Below are positions 21,980 to 60,809 of a DNA stretch of 64,000 bases, one piece after another (the first letter of the stretch is position 1; each line of letters begins with the position of its first letter). A program made the translations under genes and the position numbers. Under the pieces are notes generated by a model. It had not been told where the DNA came from, did not search any database, and worked only from the letters and a program-made list of their open reading frames with translations. The stretch spans positions 617,053-681,052 of the forward strand of contig JAECYW010000028.1 in assembly GCA_023014335.1 (NCBI GenBank), given 5' to 3'. Source of the DNA: Galerina marginata (Eukaryota; Basidiomycota; Agaricomycetes; Agaricales; Galerinaceae).

Positions 21980-22800
21980 AAATGGCAAGACATTCCCAGT
22001 CGCGATGCAGGTGTCCAAGAAGCATGGGATCGTGTTCCTCGTCACGAAATTTGGTTTCATCCACCTCTACGACCTCGAATCCGGTGCCTGCGTATATATG
22101 AACCGGATTTCTGGCGAGATGACTTGTACTTAAAGCAGTATCAGCAACTCTTCCGGTCAGGTCAGTTCGGTGAAACTGCGAAGGTAGCTGCCAACTCACC
22201 GAGGGTCAGCATATCTCTCTATTTCCTCCTCTTTCTGCACTTAATTGGTTGGTACCATGTAGGGTATTTTGCGGACAACTGCGGTTATCGAGTCATTCAA
22301 GAAAGCACCTGCTCCTCCTGGCGGCCTTATCACCCATCCTTCAGTATTTTGGTATCCTTTTGGAGAAAGGCGAACTCAACCACCTTCAATCTCTTGAACT
22401 TGCACGGCCCGTTTTGCAACAAGGCAGGAAGCAGCTCCTTGAGAACTGGTTAAAGGAGAACAAGGTAAGCAGAAGATCTTTTTTGTTGCGTAATTTAAAT
22501 TCCAGAATTAATAAAAGTTGCATAGTTAACCTGCAGTGAGGAACTTGGGAATATCGTTTGCCTTCACGACATGACACTTGCCTTAAGTATATACCTCCGC
22601 GCTAACGTTCCCAACAAAGTGGTTGCTTGCTTCGCCACGACCGGTCAAGCCGACAAGAGTGTCCTGTACTCGAAGAAAGTCGGCTATCAGCCCGACTTTG
22701 TCGCTCTCTTGCAGCATATCATGCGAACCAACTTCGAAATAGGTGCCGAGTTCGCCACACACAGTTGGCAAACGACGATAGTGGAGCACTTGTCAACATC
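21980..22800 (+). pseudogene. Clathrin heavy chain fragment, middle segment
   Basis: Translation gives [40 protein letters not shown], then at once [16 protein letters not shown] and [11 protein letters not shown]. After an intron come [39 protein letters not shown] and [19 protein letters not shown]. These match clathrin heavy chain from the end of the N-terminal propeller to about residue 565. About 110 residues are missing at the 22105-22117 junction, and frames shift near 22300. The natural continuation, about twelve residues later in the protein, is found only at 31.5 kb. Introns are retained, so it came from a DNA copy and not from mRNA. Confidence 0.85.
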
Positions 22801-22961
22801 GCTGTCTCCTCGACTTGCCTCCCTCATACCTTGGACATCCGCCGGATGTAGGCCTTGTAATAGGTTGAAAAAGGCTGTCACGGCCGTCATATCCCTCCCA
22901 AACGTCGTAAGCCCTCCTTTTCTCTTTTAAACTTTTGAAATTTAATTCTACAGTTTTGACA

Positions 22962-23510
22962 GTGTACTTGAAACTGGCACCGACCATCGATCCAGCCCCG
23001 CGGTGGGTGCCGACACCGCGCCACCTCGCTTAATCGCTACCCTGTCCACCTCCACCCCGTCTCGCGTGCCATCCACCCCGTTTGCGGGTTCCAACAACCA
23101 TCGCGAGCGCGGCGCGCCTGGAGTCGAATCCCACCCGACCACTGGGGGACAAATGGTGTGACACGAATGACCACGGCGACGATGGAGGCGCCGTCTTTGC
23201 TCAGTGCTGCGGCTTCGAGGAGTGAGAGAAGGCGAAAGGAGGAAACTGACATGGGCGGTCAAGAATGGGCCGCCATGTAGGTGAGTGTCTGGAAAGCGTT
23301 ACCTATCAAGTCCGTTGACCCGGCGTCGCAGAAAAATGGTACAGGTCGCAAGAGGACATCACGGCTGTCGATCTGTTCGAAGAGAATCGTATATAGTATG
23401 TCCCCTCTCTTTTTATCATCAAAGATTTTTCTGATTAATTTCTTTGGTAGCACCAGACACCTACTTGAAACCATATCATGGGTGCCTACACCGCCCCACC
23501 TGATTTCCTG
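22962..23510. repeat. Diverged direct repeat pair after the clathrin break
   Basis: 22962-23030 and 23459-23510 share CTTGAAAC, GGGTGCC, ACACCGC and CCACCTCG or CCACCTGA in the same order. They are probably part of the sequence inserted into the clathrin gene. Confidence 0.4.
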
Positions 23511-23906
23511 CAGTCCGGGTGCTGCTAGTCCTCCACTTCAATGACGTGGTGACATGATCTCTCCACACTTGCCGACTTCTGTCAAATCTGTGTATGTTTC
23601 GGCGTCGGAGGCTTGTTCTCAATCCCAAATTACGATACCCGCTGAAATGGCACCATATACTCCACTCTTTTCCACTCGAGCTCCGAATATTTCAGATTTA
23701 CAACAACACACCCACAAAAGTCCCATTAGAGTTCACTGTGTAGATTATACATATTAATGTAAATAGGAGACTAGCATGCCCCCACAGGCATGCCCGTGCG
23801 TCTTAGTACCGTCTTACTTGTACAAACACGTGAACCATGCGACCCAATTGGGACAAAAGTTAGCAAACATAAGTGTATTCCGTTTCTGTTATCTCACCCA
23901 TCTGCC

Positions 23907-26900
23907 ATGTCTTCTTCGACTGCCTGGAACCCCATTGTACAGCCATTGTCTGACTTTTCTCCGGATCTTGATGCTAGGCTCAATGCCTCATTTGTGCGAC
24001 TAAGGCAGAAGACAATGACTCGCAGATCAACGCCAACCTGGGAACATGAACTGAAAGTTTCCCTATCTGCAACCGATGTGCGTCTGACCCCTTCTGCTGC
24101 AGTTCTGCGCATCTTAGGCTAACACAATCCTAGTATTCTGCTATTACTGAATGGCTCAATAAGTCAACTGCTATGGATTCCTCCATCCTGCCACTAGAGA
24201 CAATTGTCCAAACATTTCTAAATGTGCAATTGCTCCACCACTATCAGCAAAAGTATTCAGCGCTCCAAGAACTGGCTCTGGTCCAAAAAAAAATTGATCA
24301 ACTCAAGGTGATATCTGTTGGATTTATCTGAAAGACATACGACTGATCTCAAGTTTTTTGATTTTTGATTTTGTCTGGGAAGTTTGGGCTTAATGGCATA
24401 CAGCAGCATCAACATAATCTCTTTGAAGACCTATCTGAAACCCTGTCTGACAGTGAGGATGAGGAGGAATTGGATGAGGATTATGTGTCCACTCCTTTAA
24501 GCAAAGATTTGCATCCTTCCTCATCCGAACCTCATTCTCCTGAGCACAAAAAGCAGAGGATCTCTTCTACTCAAGACACTATCAAAGATGCTTCACAGAT
24601 ATCTGCCTCTTTGCCGCCAATGTCGTTTGAAGAATTTGACGGACTTCCCATTTTAGCGCGTAGCAAGTCAAAATGGAATAAACTTCTGCGAAGTACTCCT
24701 AATTTTTGGTTGCAAAAATGTGTTAGCTGGCAAAAGGCTTTACAAATTGCATTTAATCATCGCCTGGATATTGATGTGAGTTTGAATCACTAATGGTAGA
24801 ACTCTGTACTGAATAAATCATAGGATAATGATCGGCAGCAATTTTATCAAAGTGTTGTGGATGTTCTGCGTGAAATGCGTCAGGTACAGCCATCCATTTA
24901 TCGGGATAAAGCTTGGAAGACAGCAGTAAAGGTAGAAATGTATCAATTCTATAAACTGGACCTCACAATATTTCAGACTTCAAACCTCTATGACATGGTT
25001 TATTCTTGGAGTGATCCAAAAGGCCTAGTCCTATGGAAAAGTGACTTCATGCAAGTGCTCATGAGAAAACACCGTATCCATGAGAGCCTTGGTCTCGTTT
25101 TATTTGACTGGATATCTGAAGAAGTCACATCTTCTTGGCAGGAGCAGGATTTCTATACATCTGTTTCATTTCAGGTGTGATTGTTTTTAGAAAAAGCAGT
25201 ATAATGACTCAATGACCAACTTTATTGCAGAACCATGGGAAAAAAATTCGAAAAAGCAAAGACCTAATACATGCTCTTAGAAAGAATCCAGAAATTATTC
25301 CTCGAAGAGCATATCCTTCCTCAGTTTTCTTTCTACTCAGTTTTGAAAACTTTGAACTGGCCTTGGAACAATGGCTGATTTATGGGCTGCAAAGCTTGAA
25401 TTATGATGTAGGATTGCAAAATCTTCATTATATATTTGCTAATGTTTTAAAATTTTAACAGGTCTCTTATTTCAAAGAAAAACAACAAAGAAAACAAGTA
25501 TATGACAATATTTGGGAATATCTTCAAGTTGTCCACAAGCTTCCAAACTTCTTTGAATCAATTGATGAAAGCCTGAGAATCATTCTACAACGTTCAATGA
25601 AATTTCGGGAAATCAAGAATGAACCTGCCCAGCATATATTGCAGAATAAAACGGTATTTGATTTCAGAAATTTCTATTCATATTATTGATTTACATATGT
25701 CAGACACTAAATTCAAGCTGCACTAAATGCTCTCATCTTGATCCTAAATATCATTGCATGCAAGATATTATGGTTACCCCTCAAAAACTAGAGGATAAAT
25801 ACCTTGGTTATGGTGTTTCACTTGCAGAGCCTGATAGTCAGATGAAGGCCATTCCAGTACCAAGTTTTTGCTTTTCTAAAAAGAAAATACTCAATATTGT
25901 TGTAGATACCACATTCCAAACCTGGATCTAAAGTGATCCAACCAATTCTACATCCAAGTGCACTTCATTTTACTAAGCAAGAATGGAATGATGAAATCCT
26001 CAATAATTGTGGCATGCAAGTTTTCCGAATAGTTGAAGAAGGAACCAAAAAAATTGTATGTGTAATTATACTGTGCAATTATATACTAAAGCTATATCCA
26101 GCTTGATTTTTGGATTTATAATGCCTTTTCCCAGAAGACTTTTGATCGACTTGTCTTGCATCATTCTGCACTCCAAAGAGTTAAAGCAATCTCACGTGGA
26201 TCTCAGTTTAATTCATATTCCCAAGGAACAATGATCCCAAAGGGTGCACGCAGAGCTATGGGTGGTGCTCCTGGAGATGCTTATACATTTTATACTGGAA
26301 TGGAAGCTGTCTCTCCTGGCGATATTGAAGCTCTATTTAATGATGCAGAGGTATGGCACGACTTGCAATTCAAAATATTTACTTAATAATCTCTTCAGGA
26401 TTCCATGATTCTTGCTGAAGCTGGCCGTTTGATTTTATACCATGTTTACAACATTTCACGTGAAAATTCTGCCCATGGTGACCGCCTTGGAATATCAGGC
26501 AGTAACACGTATTACTGCAACAATTACACTAGCCCTCTCCACCGTGATAATGATGCTGGAGCTGGACTTTGTGCTCAGTTTGAGCTCCAAGCCAAATCTG
26601 AGTTATGTGAATATGGTTTCACATATGCAGATTATAGAATTTATTTTGCGTCTAGGTCCAATTCCCTTTGGTATGCATACTTGATTTCTATAGCTTTTTC
26701 TCACTCACAATAAATTTAGGTCTTTCAGTGGCTCTGATACTCATGGCACCATGCTTCCATCAATAATTCCACTAACAGAAAAAGACAGAACTATTGCCCA
26801 TGAAAATGGACAGCCTAATGCAGATGGTGTTCCACCAAGAGTGTCTAATGGAGTTCACATACCTACAACCAAAAAAAATGCAGCAGCAGCAACTAAATAT

Positions 26901-26960
26901 CACAGGGTAAGAAAGACACGTCGTGAAATTTATAGTTATTGGCAGCAGCAGCAGGAGTAG
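23907..26960 (+). CDS. TET/JBP-type 2-oxoglutarate/Fe(II) dioxygenase, apparently intact (840 aa)
   Basis: Eleven exons join in one frame: 23907-24077, 24134-24307, 24383-24775, 24824-25174, 25231-25407, 25462-25653, 25704-25856, 25906-26055, 26102-26350, 26399-26670 and 26720-26960. All introns are 46-75 bases with GT-AG ends; 24931-24975 may be a further in-frame intron. The C-terminal part carries the iron-binding signature H718-R-D720 in YTSPLHRDND and H769 in SDTHGTMLPS, with the surrounding strand pattern of fungal TET/JBP proteins. Such enzymes oxidise 5-methylcytosine in DNA and in mushrooms are amplified with KDZ transposons. The N-terminal two thirds has a coiled coil, an acidic segment (SDSEDEEELDED) and no domain I know. 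The gene is AT-rich and sits inside the scrambled clathrin locus. Confidence 0.85.
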
Positions 26961-27124
26961 TGGAAATTCTGTATTAGAAGAATAGCATGTTGATGGAACC
27001 TGTAGAAAATGATAGAAGTCCCAGGCCTAATAAACCCCAATCTTACCCCAGTGACTCTAACACAATGCAGCATCCATGGTCTTGGCAGTGTGGAGTTTGA
27101 CTGTACAAGATGACTGTGTTTGTA

Positions 27125-27475
27125 GCTGCACTGCTAGAGGGAAAAGGACCTGGGGCAAGGACGTTCTTCTTTGTGAATGGAGGATCTGGAGCTTGATGAT
27201 CGATTTCAACAATGTGTAACTGCATCAGCCTCTATTAGCTTTAGTCAACGTAGAATGGTTTTCAATTACGAACCTTAGCCCCGGTTGCATTTCGGAGAGC
27301 AAATGTGAAGAGCTTTGTGGGCTTCTGATGGCTGTCCAGCTTCATTTCTGCGAATGCGGCTGCATGCCCTTCAATTGGTTGGCTGACGCCGCGTTCTCTG
27401 CTATTAAGTTGCATGGAACCCTTGATCTTGACAGCAGAGGGGTTCGTTGAATTCCCGGAGATAAATGGCTAGAAG
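27125..27475 (-). pseudogene. Clathrin heavy chain fragment, inverted propeller segment
   Basis: The minus strand reads [37 protein letters not shown] and [14 protein letters not shown]. After an intron (about 27230-27275) it continues with LHIVEIDHQAPDPPFTKK. This is the part of the clathrin N-terminal propeller around residues 165-245. It lies on the opposite strand from the middle and C-terminal pieces and downstream of the former although it precedes it in the protein. Confidence 0.8.
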
Positions 27476-27479
27476 CTAC

Positions 27480-28400
27480 GAGGGAACAAGGACGAGACAG
27501 CCAGATCTAGACCTCCTTCTCAAGAGATGTCAGGTGGGATGAGGCGGCCGTTCAGTCGTAGCAGCCTGATGCAGAGACGCTGGGTAAGGGAGGCCGGGGC
27601 ATGAACGAACATCGACGAGTTCTGAGAATAATGAAAACATTGATATTGAACGCCGAATCGCTGCTGCCGGTAGCAAGAGCACCGGCGTTGGCGTTGGCGC
27701 CCGCGACGATGAGAATGCCCAAAGACGTTCTGACGCGGATGCATGTGCGAGAAGGCAAAGAGACAGAGGTGGTTGGACTTTCGTCGCCTGGAGTCTGGGC
27801 CATGCTTGACGACGTGCTGCCGTTGACCTGGATGGCGTGGCCAGCATTTTCTGACGGATGCTGAAATTTTTTCCAACCTCAATTTCCATTCTTCGAGCTC
27901 CATGTACTCGTCGTAGTAAACTGGCATTTTTCGTCTACTAATAAGTCATTGGCTCGTTCGTGATCATCAACAGGCAAAGAGAAAGGACGAACATACCTTG
28001 ACATGCAGCTTGATATCCCAAGACGGATCAGTAAGCTCAAACGACCCGCTCCATCTGAATCTGCCTCTGCCTCCTCTCTCTATAAATCTCGGTACATCCA
28101 CACTTAAAGACGCTCCGCAAGCGTCCTAACACCATCTCTTGCCAGCACAGATACAGCAGACACGGCCAGCTCGATGAGCCACCTGGCACCGACCTGCGGT
28201 GTACACATTTTAGGATCCCACCTAATCTCCTCTCTGCCAAATTCCTGCTGCGAAGTTGATTGAGCCAACAATGGGGGTGGACTGAAGGAAATGGTCAAGA
28301 CCATGTGTGGGTCAGCTGGTCCATCAACGGTAGGTAGCCCTCGCTCAGTTTTCCGCCTCGAATTCGTGCTCAGGGATAATCCATACATGCCATGTAGAGA
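27480..28400 (-). other. Unassigned stretch with coding-like minus ORFs
   Basis: A minus ORF from 27927 begins with PVYYDEYMELEEWKLRLEK and soon loses any conserved look. Another, 28104-28388, is open for 94 codons (DPHMVLTISFSPPP, RWLIELAVSAVSVL). The first start resembles GIYYDEYMEHEKW on the plus strand at 31042-31083. No family was recognised. 27484-27556 is a dispersed repeat shared with 11.25 kb. Confidence 0.25.
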
Positions 28401-30111
28401 CGCGATCGAGTCAAAAGGGCCGCGGGGTGCCGTGGTCGTCGGCGTCAGATGCAGAGCTGGCGGTTTGTCTGTAAGTAGCCAAGGCTGCTACTATCTAGCA
28501 GTAAGTGAGGGCGAGCTACAGAACGACGAATAATGTTCAGCTCCGACTACAGAAGAAACCCGAACTAAGAAGCACGTACATAATTGCCTCGTTGCTCTAA
28601 TGTCGAGTCAATGACGGTGCAAGCAGCCTGATCAGCGCGTTAGTGGGTCTTAAAAGTTGCAAGCACGGAAGAATCGCAGGCCAGTGTAGCTCGTCATAAC
28701 ACGAGCTTCGTTCTTGGAAAAGATCAGCAAAGTGTTTATTCAGAGAAACTTGTTTGCTCACTTAGAACCTGCATTATGACATCCAGCTCATGAGGAGCAA
28801 GGAACCTGGAAGAGAGGCGACACGCGAAAGACAGGCGGCATCGTATGAGTCGTCGATAACAGGCCTGTACAGAAGAGTTATCAGTGGGGTCCAGGGAAGA
28901 TGGAAACTTGATTCCAACACTCACATGACGGACGCGACGCGTCCCTATATTTGCAGCGCTTTTGACGCAGTGGGCACTATTTCAAACTTGTACAACCCAT
29001 GAAATCAATGGTCTATTGGACTATCGAGCACACAAGAATAAATGAATGGCAAAATGGGCCCAACGATGTGTAGTATCGAAGGGAGATGTGACCGAGAGCA
29101 CAGGAAGCACGCCGAAATTGAATATGGTTAGCCACACTGTCCTGACATCAGAAAAAGCATGAATTCTGGTATAATTTCATTTTTTATTATTCAAAGGATA
29201 CAAAACTCAACATCGCCTACAGCTTCATAGCGTCGTTGACACTCCATCTTTGCCCAAACCCTGAGGCCTGAACCTCCAACATGGGCTGCGTAGCTAACAC
29301 CCACCTCACAGCGCTCCTTCTTGAGCTGGGACACACTACCAGCACTCCACTCTGCAGACGCAGCCGTCAAACAAATGAAAGAATAATCAAGGATACAGCA
29401 ACGGTGATGACTACATGACATGCTGGGAGATGCTGCAAGCGGGAGCGGTAGCAGGCCGTCCGGCTGCTCATTTCGCGGAATCGCGGTGAGTTACTTTCTG
29501 ACTTCATTCTCTAATTGTCGGCTGGTCTCCACGCAGCAAGGACTATGCCGCAGCTTTGGGGATGTAGGTGGCGTCGATCGCAAGTCGGGAGTCCATGTAG
29601 GTGGGCAACGGCGGGTCTTTGGATTGAAGTTCGGACCTTGTAAGACATTAAACAACGGTGGTTTGGATTTCCCGTTCAGGCGCGAAGGGGGGTGGTGGCA
29701 CGAAATATGCGTGGTCTTCGTACACGCCGTGGGTGTGCTGGGTTTGGTCCCCGTTGTCGATGTGAGATGTATAGGTCTTCAAGACTGAGAGGGTAGCCTG
29801 GCTTCTTTAGGCAACTGGCGCCTCCGCGACCCAACGGTTGTTCTCGACCAACCTTTACATCCAAAGACGAAGAATGTAAGCACCTTCTGTCCTTTCTTGT
29901 CATTTCACTGCTTACCCCAGGATTTCTTTAACTCCCCTTTCCGATGCGCAAAAGTGATGAGCTGCAAGGCAATGGCTTCCCAAACCAGTCTGCAAACCCT
30001 CCGCATTGGTATCCATAAAGAAAGTCAACAGAGTCAAATAATCTCTTTACCCCTCACCCTCAACCAACGCGCAGCCCGTAGCATCCTCCCGGACCACTTA
30101 TTCGTTTCATC
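28401..30111. other. Stretch without a supportable gene
   Basis: Short ORFs on both strands (for example 29420-29788 plus, 28736-28924 minus) lack domains and consistent splicing. The last 200 bases before 30112 are pyrimidine-rich and could be the old promoter and leader of the clathrin gene. Confidence 0.25.
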
Positions 30112-30590
30112 ATGGCTGCAGTAGACGCCTCAAAACCAATTTCTTTCTGCGAGCACCTTCAACTCTCCAGTTTAGGGGTTCAACCAGCTTCCATTTCTTT
30201 CCAGGTGCGTTGACGCGACATTGGTAGTTGCTTCTGTGTACTGACGACTGCGCTTCTATTTGGTATATTTGATAGGGATGTTCTGTTGGGCTGAAAAATA
30301 TGATTCAACCACTTACTAGGATTGCGAAACGAGACTTTGACATTAGAATCCGATCATTTCATTTGCATCCGAGAAAAAGTCAACGAGCAGGGACAGGTTG
30401 TAATCATCGACTTGTCCGACGCCAACAATGTTCTCCGGCGCCAGATTTCTGCTGACTCTGCAATAATGCACCTGAAGCAGAAGATTTTGGCGTTGAAAGG
30501 TGGGTCCACATTGCTTGATCAGTAGTCACCCTGATATTCCTGCGTAGCTGTCCACACTCTCCAGATTTTCAATATACCAATAAGTACTAG
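30112..30590 (+). pseudogene. Clathrin heavy chain fragment, N-terminal exons
   Basis: The ATG at 30112 starts a clathrin heavy chain N-terminus: PISFCEHLQLSSLGVQPASI, then an intron of about 115 bases. Next come [20 protein letters not shown] and VVIIDLSD with [11 protein letters not shown], a 47-base intron, and LSTLQIFNIP. It stops after about 95 residues at 30590, where sequence from the opposite strand begins. Clathrin heavy chain forms the triskelion of coated vesicles. This piece alone cannot do so. Confidence 0.85.
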
Positions 30591-30597
30591 CTATTTT

Positions 30598-30752
30598 CAT
30601 CTGGAGTAACGCGGTAGTTGATGATCTGAGCGCCAGCGAGGGTCGGATGTCGGTCGAATATCTTCTGAGGCGTGGAGGTTGGGTCGGCAATGGTCCAGTG
30701 GTAGACCGAACTCTCTGTCACCATTCCAATCGTGGTATTGGACACCTACTTT
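30598..30752 (-). pseudogene. Clathrin heavy chain fragment, inverted, next propeller exon
   Basis: The minus strand reads VSNTTIGMVTESSVYHWTIA, PQKIFDRHPTLAGAQIINYR and VTPDEN, that is clathrin residues of about 113-160. It abuts the N-terminal exons tail to tail within about 10 bases, so an inversion breakpoint lies near 30590-30598. Confidence 0.85.
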
Positions 30753-30807
30753 CAGAAAACTATGTCTTCATTGTTGATAGTGACCTAACTTTCTGCTTCG
30801 TTTCGAT

Positions 30808-31270
30808 GCCCCAATTCGGATCGGACCCAGCCTGTAGCTGAGACTCCAAGTAAATGGCCTGGTTCGGAAGGAAGACTTGGACTTTTGCCTGAGTTTAGGT
30901 TTGGGGTGGATGGACGGATGATTGAGATTTGGCGCGTCGTCTGAGCTGAACGTGATCTGTTTTGTGGTGTCAAAGTACGTTATTCTTGCTCTTTGGCTGC
31001 TGATGATCACGAATAGGCTGTTGATTTATCAGTAGATGTAAACTGGCATCTACTACGACGAGTACATGGAGCATGAAAAATGGGGATGACGATGGCTATA
31101 CCCCAATTTGGTTCCTTCCTCCCTTGCTGAACCTTCATACACATAAAATGTCCTGGCTCAGAAGGAGGACTTGGACTTTGATCAAGTCTGGGTTTGGAGT
31201 CGATGGGCAGATGCAAGAGGCTGATTGAGCTTGTTGTCTGAGCTAAATGCGATCTTGTGGTATGCCCTTG
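30808..31270. repeat. Diverged direct duplication inside the clathrin locus
   Basis: 30808-30975 and 31100-31270 share CCCAATT, TGGCCTGG or TCCTGGC, GAAGGAGGACTTGGACTTT-type and GTCTGAGCT blocks in the same order. Neither copy matches clathrin. Together they fill the place where clathrin coding sequence should continue. Confidence 0.45.
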
Positions 31271-31534
31271 CGCTTTCTTTGCTTGTCGACGATCATGCAC
31301 GAACTGCTGACTTATTAGTATGTCAGGTAGCATTCAACCTGACCAGGAGGTAGAAACAACTGTTGCGGCATCACTACTGTGTCAGCATCAAATGAGATCT
31401 GGTTCAATGAAAGCTGTCATTAGCAATGCTTTTATCACAATTCGCATCAAGACCAGCACTTTGATCTGCGTCATCCACACGAGCGGGTAATTAAAAGTGA
31501 ATAATACAAATTAAACAACTGCTTACCTTCTTAC

Positions 31535-34500
31535 CATTCTGGGTTGTTGATATCTTCATGTCTCAAAATATAATCCAGCCGGCAACCTCATTCTTGCTCG
31601 ACGCCCTCAAGGACGACAAGCCTGAACAAGGCCATTTGCAGACGCGCCTTTTGGAGCTCAATCTAGTTCACGCCCCCCAAGTTGCGGATGCTATTCTTGG
31701 CAATGAAATGTTCTCGCACTATGACCGTCCGAGGATTGCCAACTTGTGTGAGAAGGCTGGATTACTTCAACACGTGGGTTTTATCATTTATTCATTCCAT
31801 ATGCTCATTCTTCTATCAGACCTTGGAACACTATGAAGATATTGCAGATATCAAGTGAGCCATTGTCCATACCACTGGCCTTCCTGCTGATGTGAGTACA
31901 TACCATCTGTTCTTTGCTTGCTTTGTTGACCTGTGTTCAAAGTGGCTCGTCAACTACTTCAGCCGCCTGACAACTGAATAGTCCATGATCTGCCTCCAGG
32001 GGATGTTGCGCATCAACATTTGCCAGAACCTGCAGGTCGTTATTCAGATTGCCACCAAATACTCCGACATTTTAGGTCATATCAAGCTCATCGAGATGTT
32101 CGAAAGCTTCAAGACATTTGAGGGTCTCTACTATTATCTTGGTTCTATTGTGAACCTCAGTGAAGATCCCGAGGTTCACTTCAAGTACATCCAAGCTGCT
32201 ACTTGTACAGGTCAAATCCGTGAAGCCGAGCGTATTTGCAGAGAAAGTAACCATTACAACCCCGCGAAGGTCAAGAATTTCCTCAAAGAGGCCAAACTCG
32301 CCGACCAGCTTCCCTTGATCATTGTCTGTGATTGTTTTGACTTCATTCACGACCTCGTACTATACCTGTATCAGAATGGGCTGACAAAGTTCATCGAGGT
32401 CTACGTTCAACGGGTTAACTCTGTCCGGACGTCGCAGGTCGTTGGTGGATTGTTGGATGTTGACTGCGACGAGGCTACAATCAAGGACCTATTGATTTCT
32501 GCCACTGGTAACTTCCCCATCGATGAGTGAGTCCAGGCAGCCAGGACCCAGCAGTCTTTAATGCTGTTGCCAAGATTTACATCGACATCAACAGCAACCC
32601 AGAGCAGTTCCTCAAGGAAAACAACGTAAGCAAACCTTTGGGTCTTCTTTCACCGTCGCTTTACCTTCCTATTACCTATAGCTCTACAAACCGCTGGTCG
32701 TCGTAAAATTTTGCGAGGCACGCGATCCATATTTGGCATACATCGCTTACGCCAAAGGTCTAAATTGCGACGATGAACTTATTGCAATCACACTGGCAAA
32801 CGGTAACTCGATGTTCAAGCAACAAGCATGTTACCTCATCAAACGTCGTCAGCCTGACCTTTGGGCCCAAGTTCTCCTTCATGACAATGTTCACCGTCAA
32901 TCCCTCATTGATCAGGTTAGCTTGATGCATTTCATGCCTCTTTTTATGTGTCTTACATATATTTAGATTGTTGCAACTGCGCTACCTGAGTGCACGGATC
33001 CCGACGATGTTTCAATCACCGTCAAAGCCTTCTTGCAAGCCGACCTTCCGATTGAGCTAATTGAGCTTCTGGAGAAGATTATTATTGTGCCTTCACCATG
33101 CAGTGATAACAAGAATCTTCAGAACCTCCTCCTTCTTACTGCCATTTGCGCTGACAAGGGCAAAGATGTTGGTTATATCAACAAACTCCAGAACCATGAT
33201 GCTGGCGATATTGCAAGGATTGCAACCGAGCACGGTCTGTTCGAGGAAGCCTTGACGATCTACAAGAAGCACGAAAAACATGCCATGGCCATCAATGTCC
33301 TCGTTGAACACATTGTTTTTATCGATCATGGCCTGGAGTATGCCACAAAGGTCAATTTGCCTGAAGTTTGGAGTAGACTGGCCAGCTTGATGGTCTCTGT
33401 ATCAAACATTCAGTCGGTGCGTCTTAAAAATGACTAGCTCCTTTTATATTATTTGTTAAGCCTACTTATTTTAGAGTCCTACATTAAGGCCCAAGATCCC
33501 TCCAACTTTGCAGAAGTCATCGAAATTGCCAACCATGCTGGTAAACACGATGAACTTGTCAGATACCTACAAATGGCTCGCAAGACTCTGCGGGAACCAA
33601 AAATTGATACTGAACTTGCATCTGCTTACGCCAATACGGATCGTCTTCACGACATGAAAGACTTCCCCGGCATGACCAATGTTGCTGATATCCTCGAAGA
33701 AGTGCTTCGAGGACGAGCGTATCAAGCTGTCAAACTGTCAAACTCCTCTTCGTTAGCATCTCCAATTGAGCTCGGCTAGCAACAACGCTAATCTACCTTG
33801 GTGAAAACCAAGCTGCCGTCGAGAGTGCGCGTAAAGCAGGAAACACACAGTACGTTGTTTATTGATTTTCCACTCCCCCTCTGTCAAACTGATGGTTATT
33901 TAGGGTTTGGAAACAAGTGCACGCCACCTGCATTGAGAAGTCGGAATTGCGTCTGGTATGTTGTCCCCTCCTGTATATTCCTCACTGAACTCATCATGAC
34001 TGACCCTATCTATCTAGGCTCAAATTTGCAGTCTCCACATCATTGTTCATGCTGTATGTTCATGTGTTATAATTGCCAGGATCTTGCCTCACGATTGACT
34101 TTTTAGGAGGAGTTATCAGCACTTATCCAACTCTACGAATGACGAGGACATTTCGAAAAGATCATTAGTCTTCTGGAGGCTGGTTTGAGCTTGGAGCGTG
34201 CTCGTATGGGAATATTTACCGAGCTGTCGATCCTCCTCAGCAAGTACAAGCCCGTCAAACGTAAGTACTGTCAACAAGTGTTGATTTTATGTCTGGCCAG
34301 TCATGGAACATCTCAAACTCTTTGTCGCCCGCATCAACATTCCCAAGGTGATCAAGGCCACCGAGAAAGCTCATCTCTGGAACTCGTGTTCCTATACATC
34401 AAATATGATGAATTCGTCCGTACACCTCTTGTCCTTGAGCGCTCTGCCGATGCTCGGGAGCACAACCAATTCAAGGATGTCATTGTTCGCGCAGCAAATG

Positions 34501-58038: not shown

Positions 58039-60321
58039 TCAAGGAAGATAAGTGAGGGTAGCTTGTGGAGTTGGCTCAGGCTTAGCAGGAGGCCAACCCT
58101 TCAACCATGTAAGGACCAAACGTCGGTCATGATCCGCACCAATTGACATGTCATATGGCCTATTCGATGATGGCCAAGGGACTGAGGGGTCACGATTAGG
58201 CGGGTAGAACGTCGTTCCGACCTTTCCTCCCCATTTAAAATCAACTACCTTTAGATAGGGTGGGTCGCCAGCTTTGTTGTTCTCCAAGATACAAGTCGGA
58301 GGGCCATCTTCTACCTTAACAATGGAAATATTGATCATGATGTTGTTGGGTCGTAGGTCGCCGTGTACGAAACCCGCTTCCTCCAAGAAACTGACAATAT
58401 TTAGAACGGCAGTTTTGATCGCCTCATACATAACACCCGCCTCATTGGGAAAATCCAGTCCCAGTTTCCCCAAGCTTATCCAACCTTTGACCTTTCCGGC
58501 AGCGACATCAGGAGGGTCAAGCAATTCCATGACGCATAACTTCGCCACAGGAGAATTTGCTTTGCCTTGGATAGTAGGGGCTCGCAATAGGGCAGGAGCT
58601 AAATCGACCGCCGCGAGAAATGAATGGAGTTCCGTGCTATAGCGATCCTTCCCATCGACTAGAAAGATATTTCTAGTGAGCACCAGTCTGGGCTCATCGA
58701 AATCACTGTCCTGAACTTCATCGCGATGAATGGCAGCACGAGTGATCTCGGAATTCCTTTCAGCCTTTGCCAACTCTTCCTTTAATCGCTGGATCTCAGC
58801 ATCCTGTCTGGCAAGCAGTTGCTCACGAGCTACCGATTGAGCTTCTCTAGAGGCGGTGCTCTGAGAATCGGGGTATAAGATTGCTCTGTAGAGACTGCCC
58901 GACGGAGATTGTAGTCTTCCTAGAGGCTTGAGGTACGAAGGGTATATGTGTGGTAAGTCAGGGATATTGCCAGAAACTATACGGTCTTCCTCAGGAGGAT
59001 GGTGAGTTCTATGTAACAATAGGGCATAAGAACCAGTGAACTAATGATAAAGATGTACCCACTTTGGAAGATAAGCGATTGCCTCTTTTATAGAATACAG
59101 TCTTCTGGCCATTTCCTCTAGATTCTGGTTGTAGTCATCGGGCTCCAGAGTAACGTAACCACCGAACTGCTGAATAACTGGGCTGCCAGTCAATGTATCA
59201 CAAAATCCACCACCGACACTGAAGGAGGTGCCTAAAGAAAAGTAAGAAAGTCTAATCATCAAAACTATGATGTGAAACGAACCGGCGAGTTGTAACAGAA
59301 ATACCGGCGCTCCACTTCCACATTGCCGTACTCCCTCCTCCTCATCTACATATAACTGATATAAACGCCCATTTTGCATGAAGGGGTCTCCTCCAACACC
59401 AATCTCCAGTTTAACCTCGACCATAAGCACGGGAGCATGGGTGTCTTTCCGTTTGTATACGAGATCAATGCGAGTTCGACTTATATTGGCGGGATTTTTA
59501 TCCGGCGTTGTAGTCGTGTATGGTTTCTTCTCGGAAAACCATTGGAAATTTTCGTCGTTCGGAAAGATTTCCAGAATCGGGATCATGAAATCGATGACTC
59601 GATCGCTGTGTGATTCGAATATTTGAGGCATTTTTTCAAGTAGCTTGGCAACCCCAATGGCTACCATATTGTAGGTATCGTCGTTCAGTGGTGAGCGCTG
59701 GACCATCAGCTCCTTGAATACTAGAAATGCCCCGCTGTGAAACTCCATGGCCAGGGGCCGCTGATCTGCTTGGTCTCGCGATGTACGTGGGCCTCCAGGT
59801 TTACCCCAGTTCCAATAATAACCATAAGCTGAGGGGATAGGTAGCCCTTTATTTAGAACTTTAACAAGATTCGTGCGTATTGCCTCCATTTTCTCGAACC
59901 TTTCGACCACTTTAGAGTCCATATTCTCGACCTGAAGGAAAGGACGATTGATAAAATCATGGTTAAGGATGTCTTGACGATTTGTGATATTCGAAAAAAG
60001 GCCAGAGTATGAAGTAGCCGTTTTCTCCAAATCCTCGTACCACCTTGTCTGCGAGGCGAAACTGAAGTGACTCAATACCTCTGATATCGCTATCATCATC
60101 GGGTAGAGGAGGTCCTGAGCCTCAGTTTTCAGAAAATGTTCTTGGTCCGGATCGTTGAAGGTCTTCTTTTTGCGATAAGGGTCCTTTGACTTGGCCTTTC
60201 TTTTCGAAGGAGACGATGCTCTTGAGGTAGCAGTGGGGGGAGCCAGAGAGGAAGAGGGAGTTGTCTCTGGATGACGCTCGTTTTCATTTGGGGTGCGTCG
60301 AATTGAATTATTGTGCGCCAT
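58039..60321 (-). CDS. PD-(D/E)XK nuclease fused to kinase-like domain, catalytic residues kept (725 aa)
   Basis: Three exons, 60321-59283, 59231-59063 and 59008-58039, join in frame. Both intron positions and phases equal those of the paralogue at 37-39.4 kb. A Ser/Pro-rich, basic N-terminus (KRKAKSKDPYRKKK, possible nuclear signal) precedes the nuclease part, with Asp286 (RIDLVYK) and Glu302-x-Lys304 (VEVKLEIG). FLLQLAG follows, then a coiled coil at about 450-495. The kinase-like part has HGDLRPNN (Asp620, Asn624) and VVDFKWGGK (Asp659). This architecture is known for Crinkler-type effectors and related fungal proteins thought to derive from transposons. Both activities look possible. Target unknown; a nuclear or cell-cell conflict role is inferred only. 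Confidence 0.8.
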
Positions 60322-60331
60322 TGAATGGGTA

Positions 60332-60360
60332 GAGATTGAGATTGAGATTGAGATTGAGAT
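60332..60360. repeat. Hexanucleotide microsatellite upstream of nuclease-kinase gene
   Basis: About five units of GAGATT lie 11 bases before the start codon of the minus-strand gene, in its presumed leader. Confidence 0.8.
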
Positions 60361-60809
60361 AGCGATTGAAGTGAGTAGCGTAATCCTTGCACGCCTAAAC
60401 CTGCCATGCTTGATGAACTCTAAATATCCAAATTTAACCTATGAGAAAGACGAGACCAGTGCCACTGGCCACAGAATGCACAACGAAGGAGATGCAACAA
60501 TACTCTGGGTTATCCTGTCTGTAACTTGCATGCTTTCAATAACTTGGTGTTGCATGCATGGTTGGTTCATGGTTCAAGTTTCATAGAAACGTCGGATCAA
60601 CATATTAGATAATGTGCAACCTTATATTTCTTTTTGGAATGCGTACCCGGTACCCTATACAACACTCAATTTTCCTATCCTTGATTACTGAAAATATCCT
60701 TTCTTCCAGTTCTTAATGTACCAGTTAAACAAAATCTACCACTAAGTAGCATGCATTAGTTTAGAATGGGGCAAGAGGGCACCAACATCATCAATAGCCG
60801 CACAAGGTT

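What the first reader, a model, noticed from the sequence alone, without database searches (positions are those of the whole stretch)
23907..26960. Intact TET/JBP DNA dioxygenase gene inside a broken clathrin gene
The eleven-exon model is open throughout and keeps H718-x-D720 and H769. Its neighbours are decayed. Clathrin pieces lie on both sides: protein order is interrupted at 22.8 kb and resumes at 31.5 kb. Fungal TET/JBP genes are known to be amplified with KDZ transposons (Iyer et al. 2014), but no KDZ transposase adjoins this one. It may be a solo, selfish or domesticated cytosine-oxidising gene whose N-terminal 650 residues have no known domain.
Basis: partly seen in the sequence, partly recalled or inferred. 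Interest (0 to 1): 0.85.

Follow-up and report, generated by a model that had tools for sequence, protein, structure and literature searches.

The report
Solo TET-like gene in scrambled clathrin
An intact mushroom gene, probably for an enzyme that oxidises DNA bases, sits in a scrambled spare copy of a clathrin gene; its sister genes belong to a large multi-gene mobile element, for which I found no description, that also carries a histone-methyltransferase-like gene and gathers in one block per chromosome piece.

Summary
Its eleven-exon model (840 aa, H718/D720/H769) reproduces exactly. Relatives show one more in-frame 45-nt intron: 12 exons, 825 aa, H703/D705/H754. It is open throughout and codon comparison with two other copies indicates purifying selection (dN/dS 0.14-0.15). 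The clathrin break is real: two paralogous sites show the junction unbroken. But it is a rearranged duplicate, with more clathrin-locus DNA, partly inverted, from 27160 on.

TET/JBP membership is not shown: Pfam Tet_JBP misses it and the structure models of two relatives fail over the catalytic part. Invariant HxD, H and R-x-S residues and a TET-like motif around HxD favour an Fe(II)/2OG oxygenase.

The larger find lies outside the window. A sister subfamily sits in a multi-gene element of at least 14 kb that also encodes a SET protein (best solved match KMT5B) and a weakly F-box-like protein and ends in a 29-bp hairpin. These genes form one block on each of 12 contigs, plausibly centromeres. 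The window copy is a solo gene far from such blocks.

The parts
23907..26960 (+). TET-like gene, 12 exons: 23907-24077, 24134-24307, 24383-24775, 24824-24931, 24977-25174, 25231-25407, 25462-25653, 25704-25856, 25906-26055, 26102-26350, 26399-26670, 26720-26960 (stop codon included); 825 aa
   Evidence: open chain with GT..AG introns; relatives 66% identical over the full length; alignment
24932..24976 (+).
   Evidence: absent from relatives covering the stretch; GT..AG at the same place in both other full copies
26540..26548 (+). H703-R-D705, putative iron-binding HxD
   Evidence: sequence; H and D invariant in 8 of 8 catalytic regions
26742..26744 (+). H754, putative distal iron-binding His (HGT)
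   Evidence: sequence; invariant in 8 of 8
26838..26846 (+). R786-V-S788, possible 2-oxoglutarate-binding Arg
   Evidence: R and S invariant in 8 of 8; 32 residues after the distal His, so assignment uncertain
22802..27159 (.). 4,358-bp segment that holds the gene, between two breakpoints of the rearranged clathrin copy
23614..23822 (.). dispersed repeat of about 200 bp just upstream of the gene; four further places, 83-85% identical
21986..22801 (+). clathrin gene piece upstream of the break
   Evidence: 98.3% to L055, 91-94% to L056
27160..30807 (-). clathrin-locus DNA: 27160-27463 and 30574-30807 inverted against L056, 30013-30575 direct; 27160-28701 99.4% to L055
31482..34262 (+). clathrin gene piece downstream of the break (repeat hits 31543-34262)

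Best explanation
The gene is an intact solo member of a mushroom protein family (about 820 aa) with a helical N-terminal part, conserved C-x2-C...C residues in the middle and a C-terminal HxD...H...R-x-S domain that is most likely an Fe(II)/2-oxoglutarate oxygenase related to, but outside, the recognised TET/JBP profile. A sister subfamily (B) in the same genome is part of a multi-gene mobile element of at least 14 kb with a SET-domain gene, a weakly F-box-like gene and a 29-bp terminal hairpin, gathered in one block per contig (candidate centromeres). Proposed mechanism (inferred): the oxygenase oxidises a methylated DNA base, most likely 5-methylcytosine, on or near the element, and the SET protein sets a matching histone mark, so that the element stays usable inside silenced chromatin. 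The window copy belongs to subfamily A, whose three copies here stand alone and are kept under purifying selection; it reached its place through rearrangement of a duplicated clathrin locus. Shown: open frame, family, selection, element anatomy apart from its left end, clustering, unbroken paralogous sites. Inferred: enzyme activity, substrate, benefit to the element, centromere identity, mobility of the window copy.
For: Open 825-codon chain and dN/dS 0.152 and 0.143 against two other open copies. H, D, H, R, S invariant in 8 of 8 catalytic regions; HxD in 16 of 16 distinct cores and HGT and RVS in 14 of 14 distinct tails found by tblastn in this genome's loci, family relatives only. N-x-x-[TS]-P-x-H-x-D in the family and a similar stretch before HxD in this genome's Tet_JBP genes. 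Element: 96.8% identity over 14,280 bp between C12 and C42 copies, same right end with different flanks, SET match E 7.5e-10 with KMT5B the best solved match, one block per contig on 12 contigs, hairpin downstream on the same strand of 24 of 28 F copies.
Against: No Pfam Tet_JBP match; weak profile comparison; no PDB sequence match to an oxygenase; low-confidence models and empty fold search. The conserved Arg is 32 residues after the distal His, about 8 in this genome's clear Tet_JBP genes. Left end, target-site duplication and transposase of the element were not found. No expression, methylation or CENP-A data.
Confidence: 0.5

Rival explanations
1. Subfamily A, including the window gene, is an ordinary host gene (old or domesticated) with its own chromatin role, and the element carries a relative of it.
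For: Purifying selection; the A branch runs Phlegmacium, Flammula, then Galerina, as expected for vertical descent (species order recalled); the A copies are not joined to SET or F-box-like genes.
Against: Of the three A copies here, only C40:2668k has a near-identical protein among the Galerina marginata CBS 339.88 proteins found (P0003; P0004 and P0006 are more distant), which looks like gain and loss; protein lists and searches are incomplete. The window copy is absent from both paralogous clathrin sites.
Confidence: 0.25
2. The HxD...H pattern is accidental and the protein is not an oxygenase, for example the element's own transposition or replication protein; solo A genes would then be minimal elements.
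For: No known domain in the protein, no known transposase among the 9 element ORFs scanned, and no oxygenase fold recovered.
Against: H, D, H, R and S invariant; TET-like residues around HxD and a suggestive profile score.
Confidence: 0.2
3. It is a standard AG-type TET/JBP gene that lost its Kyakuja (KDZ) transposase.
For: KDZ-associated CxC5 and CxC6 domains lie about 23 kb downstream.
Against: This genome has separate genes that match Tet_JBP (18 hits, 8 marked over the cut-off), none of them in the window; this family does not match it, and its sister genes sit in a different multi-gene element.
Confidence: 0.05

Closest known systems
AG-type TET/JBP dioxygenases of Kyakuja and Zisupton transposons, with CcTET (Kojima 2025, PMC12730594)
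   Same: HxD and a distal His near the C-terminus; T-P-x-H-R-D-type motif; multi-copy in a mushroom; sister genes in mobile elements
   Different: no Pfam Tet_JBP match; long N-terminal part; Arg 32 residues after the distal His; no KDZ transposase alongside; SET gene in the element of the sister genes
PE-type TET/JBP dioxygenases (same paper)
   Same: distant from classical TET; found in Agaricales transposons, Laccaria among them
   Different: PE hallmark is HxE; this family has HxD in the 8 regions aligned
HarbingerS transposons with a SET-domain methyltransferase (title only, in the reference list of PMC12730594)
   Same: a mobile element carrying a SET gene
   Different: here a SET gene together with a TET-like gene, no Harbinger transposase seen
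Helitrons (features recalled)
   Same: hairpin near the 3' end, no terminal inverted repeats found
   Different: no CTRR-type end; no Rep-helicase among the ORFs scanned; left end unknown

Membership tests
TET/JBP dioxygenases | match to the curated Tet_JBP profile | tested here: not met
   no match at E<=1 or, for 8 catalytic regions, at E<=5
TET/JBP dioxygenases | HxD and distal His | tested here: met
   invariant in 8 of 8 catalytic regions; 16 of 16 cores and 14 of 14 tails
TET/JBP dioxygenases | 2OG-binding Arg soon after the distal His | tested here: inconclusive
   R-x-S invariant but 32 residues after the His
TET/JBP dioxygenases | double-stranded beta-helix fold | tested here: inconclusive
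   models of two relatives have pLDDT under 50 over this part; fold search without significant match
TET/JBP dioxygenases | oxidation of 5-methylcytosine | not testable with these tools
   needs purified protein
PE-type TET/JBP | HxE in place of HxD | tested here: not met
   HxD; criterion from PMC12730594 section 3.4
TET+ Kyakuja (KDZ) transposon | KDZ transposase alongside | tested here: not met
   nearest KDZ-associated domains found are about 23 kb away, in separate ORFs; not every ORF of the window was scanned
Mobile element (B copies) | several near-identical copies with a common end and different flanks | tested here: met
   right end only
Mobile element (B copies) | target-site duplication and left end | tested here: inconclusive
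   left end not reached
Helitron | Rep-helicase gene and CTRR 3' end | tested here: inconclusive
   no such domain in the 9 ORFs scanned; end reads CTCGTAA; left part not fully examined

The most novel reading that the evidence does not exclude
A previously undescribed kind of mobile element: hairpin-ended, gathered at centromeres, without a known transposase, pairing a TET-like base oxidase with a KMT5-like histone methyltransferase so as to write its own chromatin state. The window gene is a solo member of the oxidase family living away from those sites.
Probability: 0.4. Interest if true: 0.87.

Novelty: new variant of a known kind. Interest (0 to 1): 0.68.

Why it matters
Fungal TET-like genes on DNA transposons are known. 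An element that pairs one with a SET gene and clusters once per contig would tie base oxidation, histone methylation and centromere-like regions together in one selfish unit. Passages of two papers report oxidised methylcytosine at centromeres of Coprinopsis cinerea, so the idea can be tested directly. The solo copies offer a case of such an enzyme kept under selection outside the element.

Tried and rejected
Rejected: a single element inserted in clathrin (the 8,680-bp stretch contains clathrin-locus DNA, partly inverted). A 9-bp target-site duplication, suggested by overlapping BLAST ends, did not survive reading the junctions (at most CG is shared). No convincing terminal inverted repeats around the 8,680-bp stretch or between left and right regions of the C12 element.

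Led nowhere: fold search on a poor model; viral contigs (59 stretches matched a pattern, none confirmed); PDB search with the family profile (3 matches, E 0.34 or worse); left end of the element.

Rows left out: one search used all 76 pieces, all 36 and 30 of 45 (dropped: 12 at 26-33% identity and 3 short pieces). One search used 28 of 45 F rows, 26 of 36 SET rows and the 100 hairpin places listed of 1,122. One search scored 55 of 143 candidates, so its counts are lower bounds. P0014, P0017 and P0018 were left out of the tree. One search kept hits covering over 80% of the query.

Full report
Observation. Aligned with ten relatives, it has 15 extra residues in exon 4. They are a 45-nt in-frame intron (24932-24976); both other full copies in the genome have GT..AG at the same place. 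The better model is 12 exons and 825 aa, with H703, D705, H754 and R786-x-S788. Best outside match: a Flammula alnicola protein, 66% over the full length.

Family. Three protein searches gave 19 proteins, from Galerina, Flammula, Gymnopilus, Phlegmacium, Laccaria and Infundibulicybe (all Agaricales, recalled). They are named hypothetical, predicted or uncharacterised, and no precomputed Pfam domain is shown. A scan of viral contigs found none. The copy at C40:2668k is nearly identical to Galerina marginata GALMADRAFT_57184 (branch lengths 0.0056 and 0.002), so I take the genome to be a Galerina (inference).

Selection. The window copy and the two C40 copies are open over 825, 821 and 819 codons. 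Pairwise dN/dS is 0.152 and 0.143 for the window copy and 0.171 between the other two; synonymous sites are near saturation. These values average over long times and do not prove present function.

Is it TET/JBP? For: H, D, H, R and S are invariant in 8 of 8 catalytic regions. HxD recurs in 16 of 16 distinct cores, and HGT and RVS in 14 of 14 distinct tails, found in this genome's loci (one tail carries a stop codon). The stretch through HxD (NYTSPLHRDND) resembles that of this genome's own Tet_JBP genes (NRITPVHRDSN). A loosened profile comparison aligned the two HxD motifs, though not the distal His or the Arg; its score, 20.1, was reached by 1 of 100 shuffled decoys. Against: no Pfam match, probability 0.3 in the first profile comparison and 1.2 in the second, no oxygenase in the PDB sequence search, low-confidence models of two relatives and no significant fold match. 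I rate an Fe(II)/2OG oxygenase as likely and TET/JBP membership as open.

The clathrin setting. L055 (C21:592-595 kb) and L056 (C5:41-44 kb) hold the clathrin junction unbroken...ACATCG|AGC.GG..., where the window has 22802-31481. Window and L055 are 98-99% alike; window and L056 91-94%. Inside the interval, DNA from 27160 on belongs to the clathrin locus: 27160-27463 and 30574-30807 are inverted against L056, 30013-30575 is direct. Read by eye, the L056 stretch at that breakpoint codes for clathrin N-terminal sequence (motif recalled). The gene thus lies in a 4,358-bp segment (22802-27159) between two breakpoints of a rearranged duplicate. As neither paralogous site has it, it probably arrived after the C21 duplication (inference). 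Nine PF00637 hits run along C5 at 43.6-47.3 kb, which suggests an intact gene there; I did not read it in full.

The element. A search with the Flammula protein gave 76 pieces, merging to 27 places: three of subfamily A (window, C40:1645k, C40:2668k) and 24 of subfamily B. B copies on C12 and C42 are 96.8% alike over 14,280 bp. Order in these two: TET-like gene, 31-bp tandem repeats, SET gene, minus-strand ORFs, plus-strand ORFs ending with a 341-aa one whose F-box match is weak (E 0.04, below cut-off), right end. The SET protein, one intron removed, matches Pfam SET at E 7.5e-10; its best solved relatives are KMT5B/SUV420H1 (E 1e-5). Both copies share their last bases, the hairpin ACGAGTTCTTTTACTACGTAAGAACTCGT and then AA, and then differ; the C12 right flank reads as copia by eye. 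In C14 and C39 copies the order is TET-like, F, SET. The left end was not reached: upstream DNA is related but diverged. None of the other element ORFs matched the window.

Clustering. TET-like B genes, SET and F-box-like genes form one block per contig, 9-159 kb long, on 12 contigs. Exceptions: one F copy on C10, one diverged SET on C13, and the A genes. The hairpin occurs 1,122 times with up to 3 mismatches (reversed control 0). The 100 places listed fall in one region, 52-512 kb wide, on each of 15 contigs; the other 1,022 were not shown. The window has none. A hairpin follows 24 of 28 F copies on the same strand within 3 kb (2 of 28 have one in another position). Of 26 SET copies, 4 have one, at 656-660 bp; three of these 4 are in the order TET-like, F, SET. 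In a copia search, all 18 of 67 rows at 91% identity or more lie inside, or within about 31 kb of, these regions; weaker rows are spread widely. Centromeres are the simplest reading, but nothing here measures them.

The window copy. Similarity to the C40:2668k copy starts at the ATG and stops near the stop codon. The flanks showed no match to either C40 copy in the loci held. Its left flank holds repeats of 66-85% identity. The window begins about 350 kb from the hairpin places listed on its own contig.

Novelty. Kojima 2025 (PMC12730594; abstract, sections 2, 3.2 and 3.4 and searched passages read) describes PU, AG and PE types on many transposon lineages. In what I read, this family and a joint TET-like/SET element do not appear; Galerina is not mentioned. 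Eight paper searches (listings only) showed no description. Iyer et al. 2014 is not held and may treat members of this family; what is said of it is recalled. PMC8889193 was read in passages only.

Noticed in passing
G000:C23:2791967-2870203 (L005-L008 hold four of them): Five Tet_JBP hits spaced about 19,463 bp apart: a tandem array of large units each with a TET-like gene.
   Followed up: no
G000:C40:2730728-2811647: Five copia fragments spaced about 20,170 bp apart: another tandem array of large units.
   Followed up: no
G000:C1:338685-343168: Six hairpin variants exactly 891 bp apart, a tandem array of short hairpin-bearing units.
   Followed up: no
G000, 15 contigs: The 29-bp hairpin has 1,122 matches, far more than the full elements, so many short relatives probably share this end.
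   Followed up: partly
window:50368-51848: Broken ORFs with KDZ-associated CxC5 and CxC6 domains.
   Followed up: partly
window:7097-9554: tnp2-type (Transposase_21) transposase ORF with a weak Plavaka match, followed by an ORF with a weak DUF4218 match.
   Followed up: partly
window:37082-39528 and 58039-60438: Two pairs of long minus-strand ORFs of similar layout; the downstream member of each pair has weak kinase or APH matches, below cut-off.
   Followed up: no
L066:9385-9999: Minus-strand ORF beyond the right end of the C12 element, looking by eye like a ubiquitin-protease-type protein; Pfam gave only a weak zinc-finger match.
   Followed up: partly
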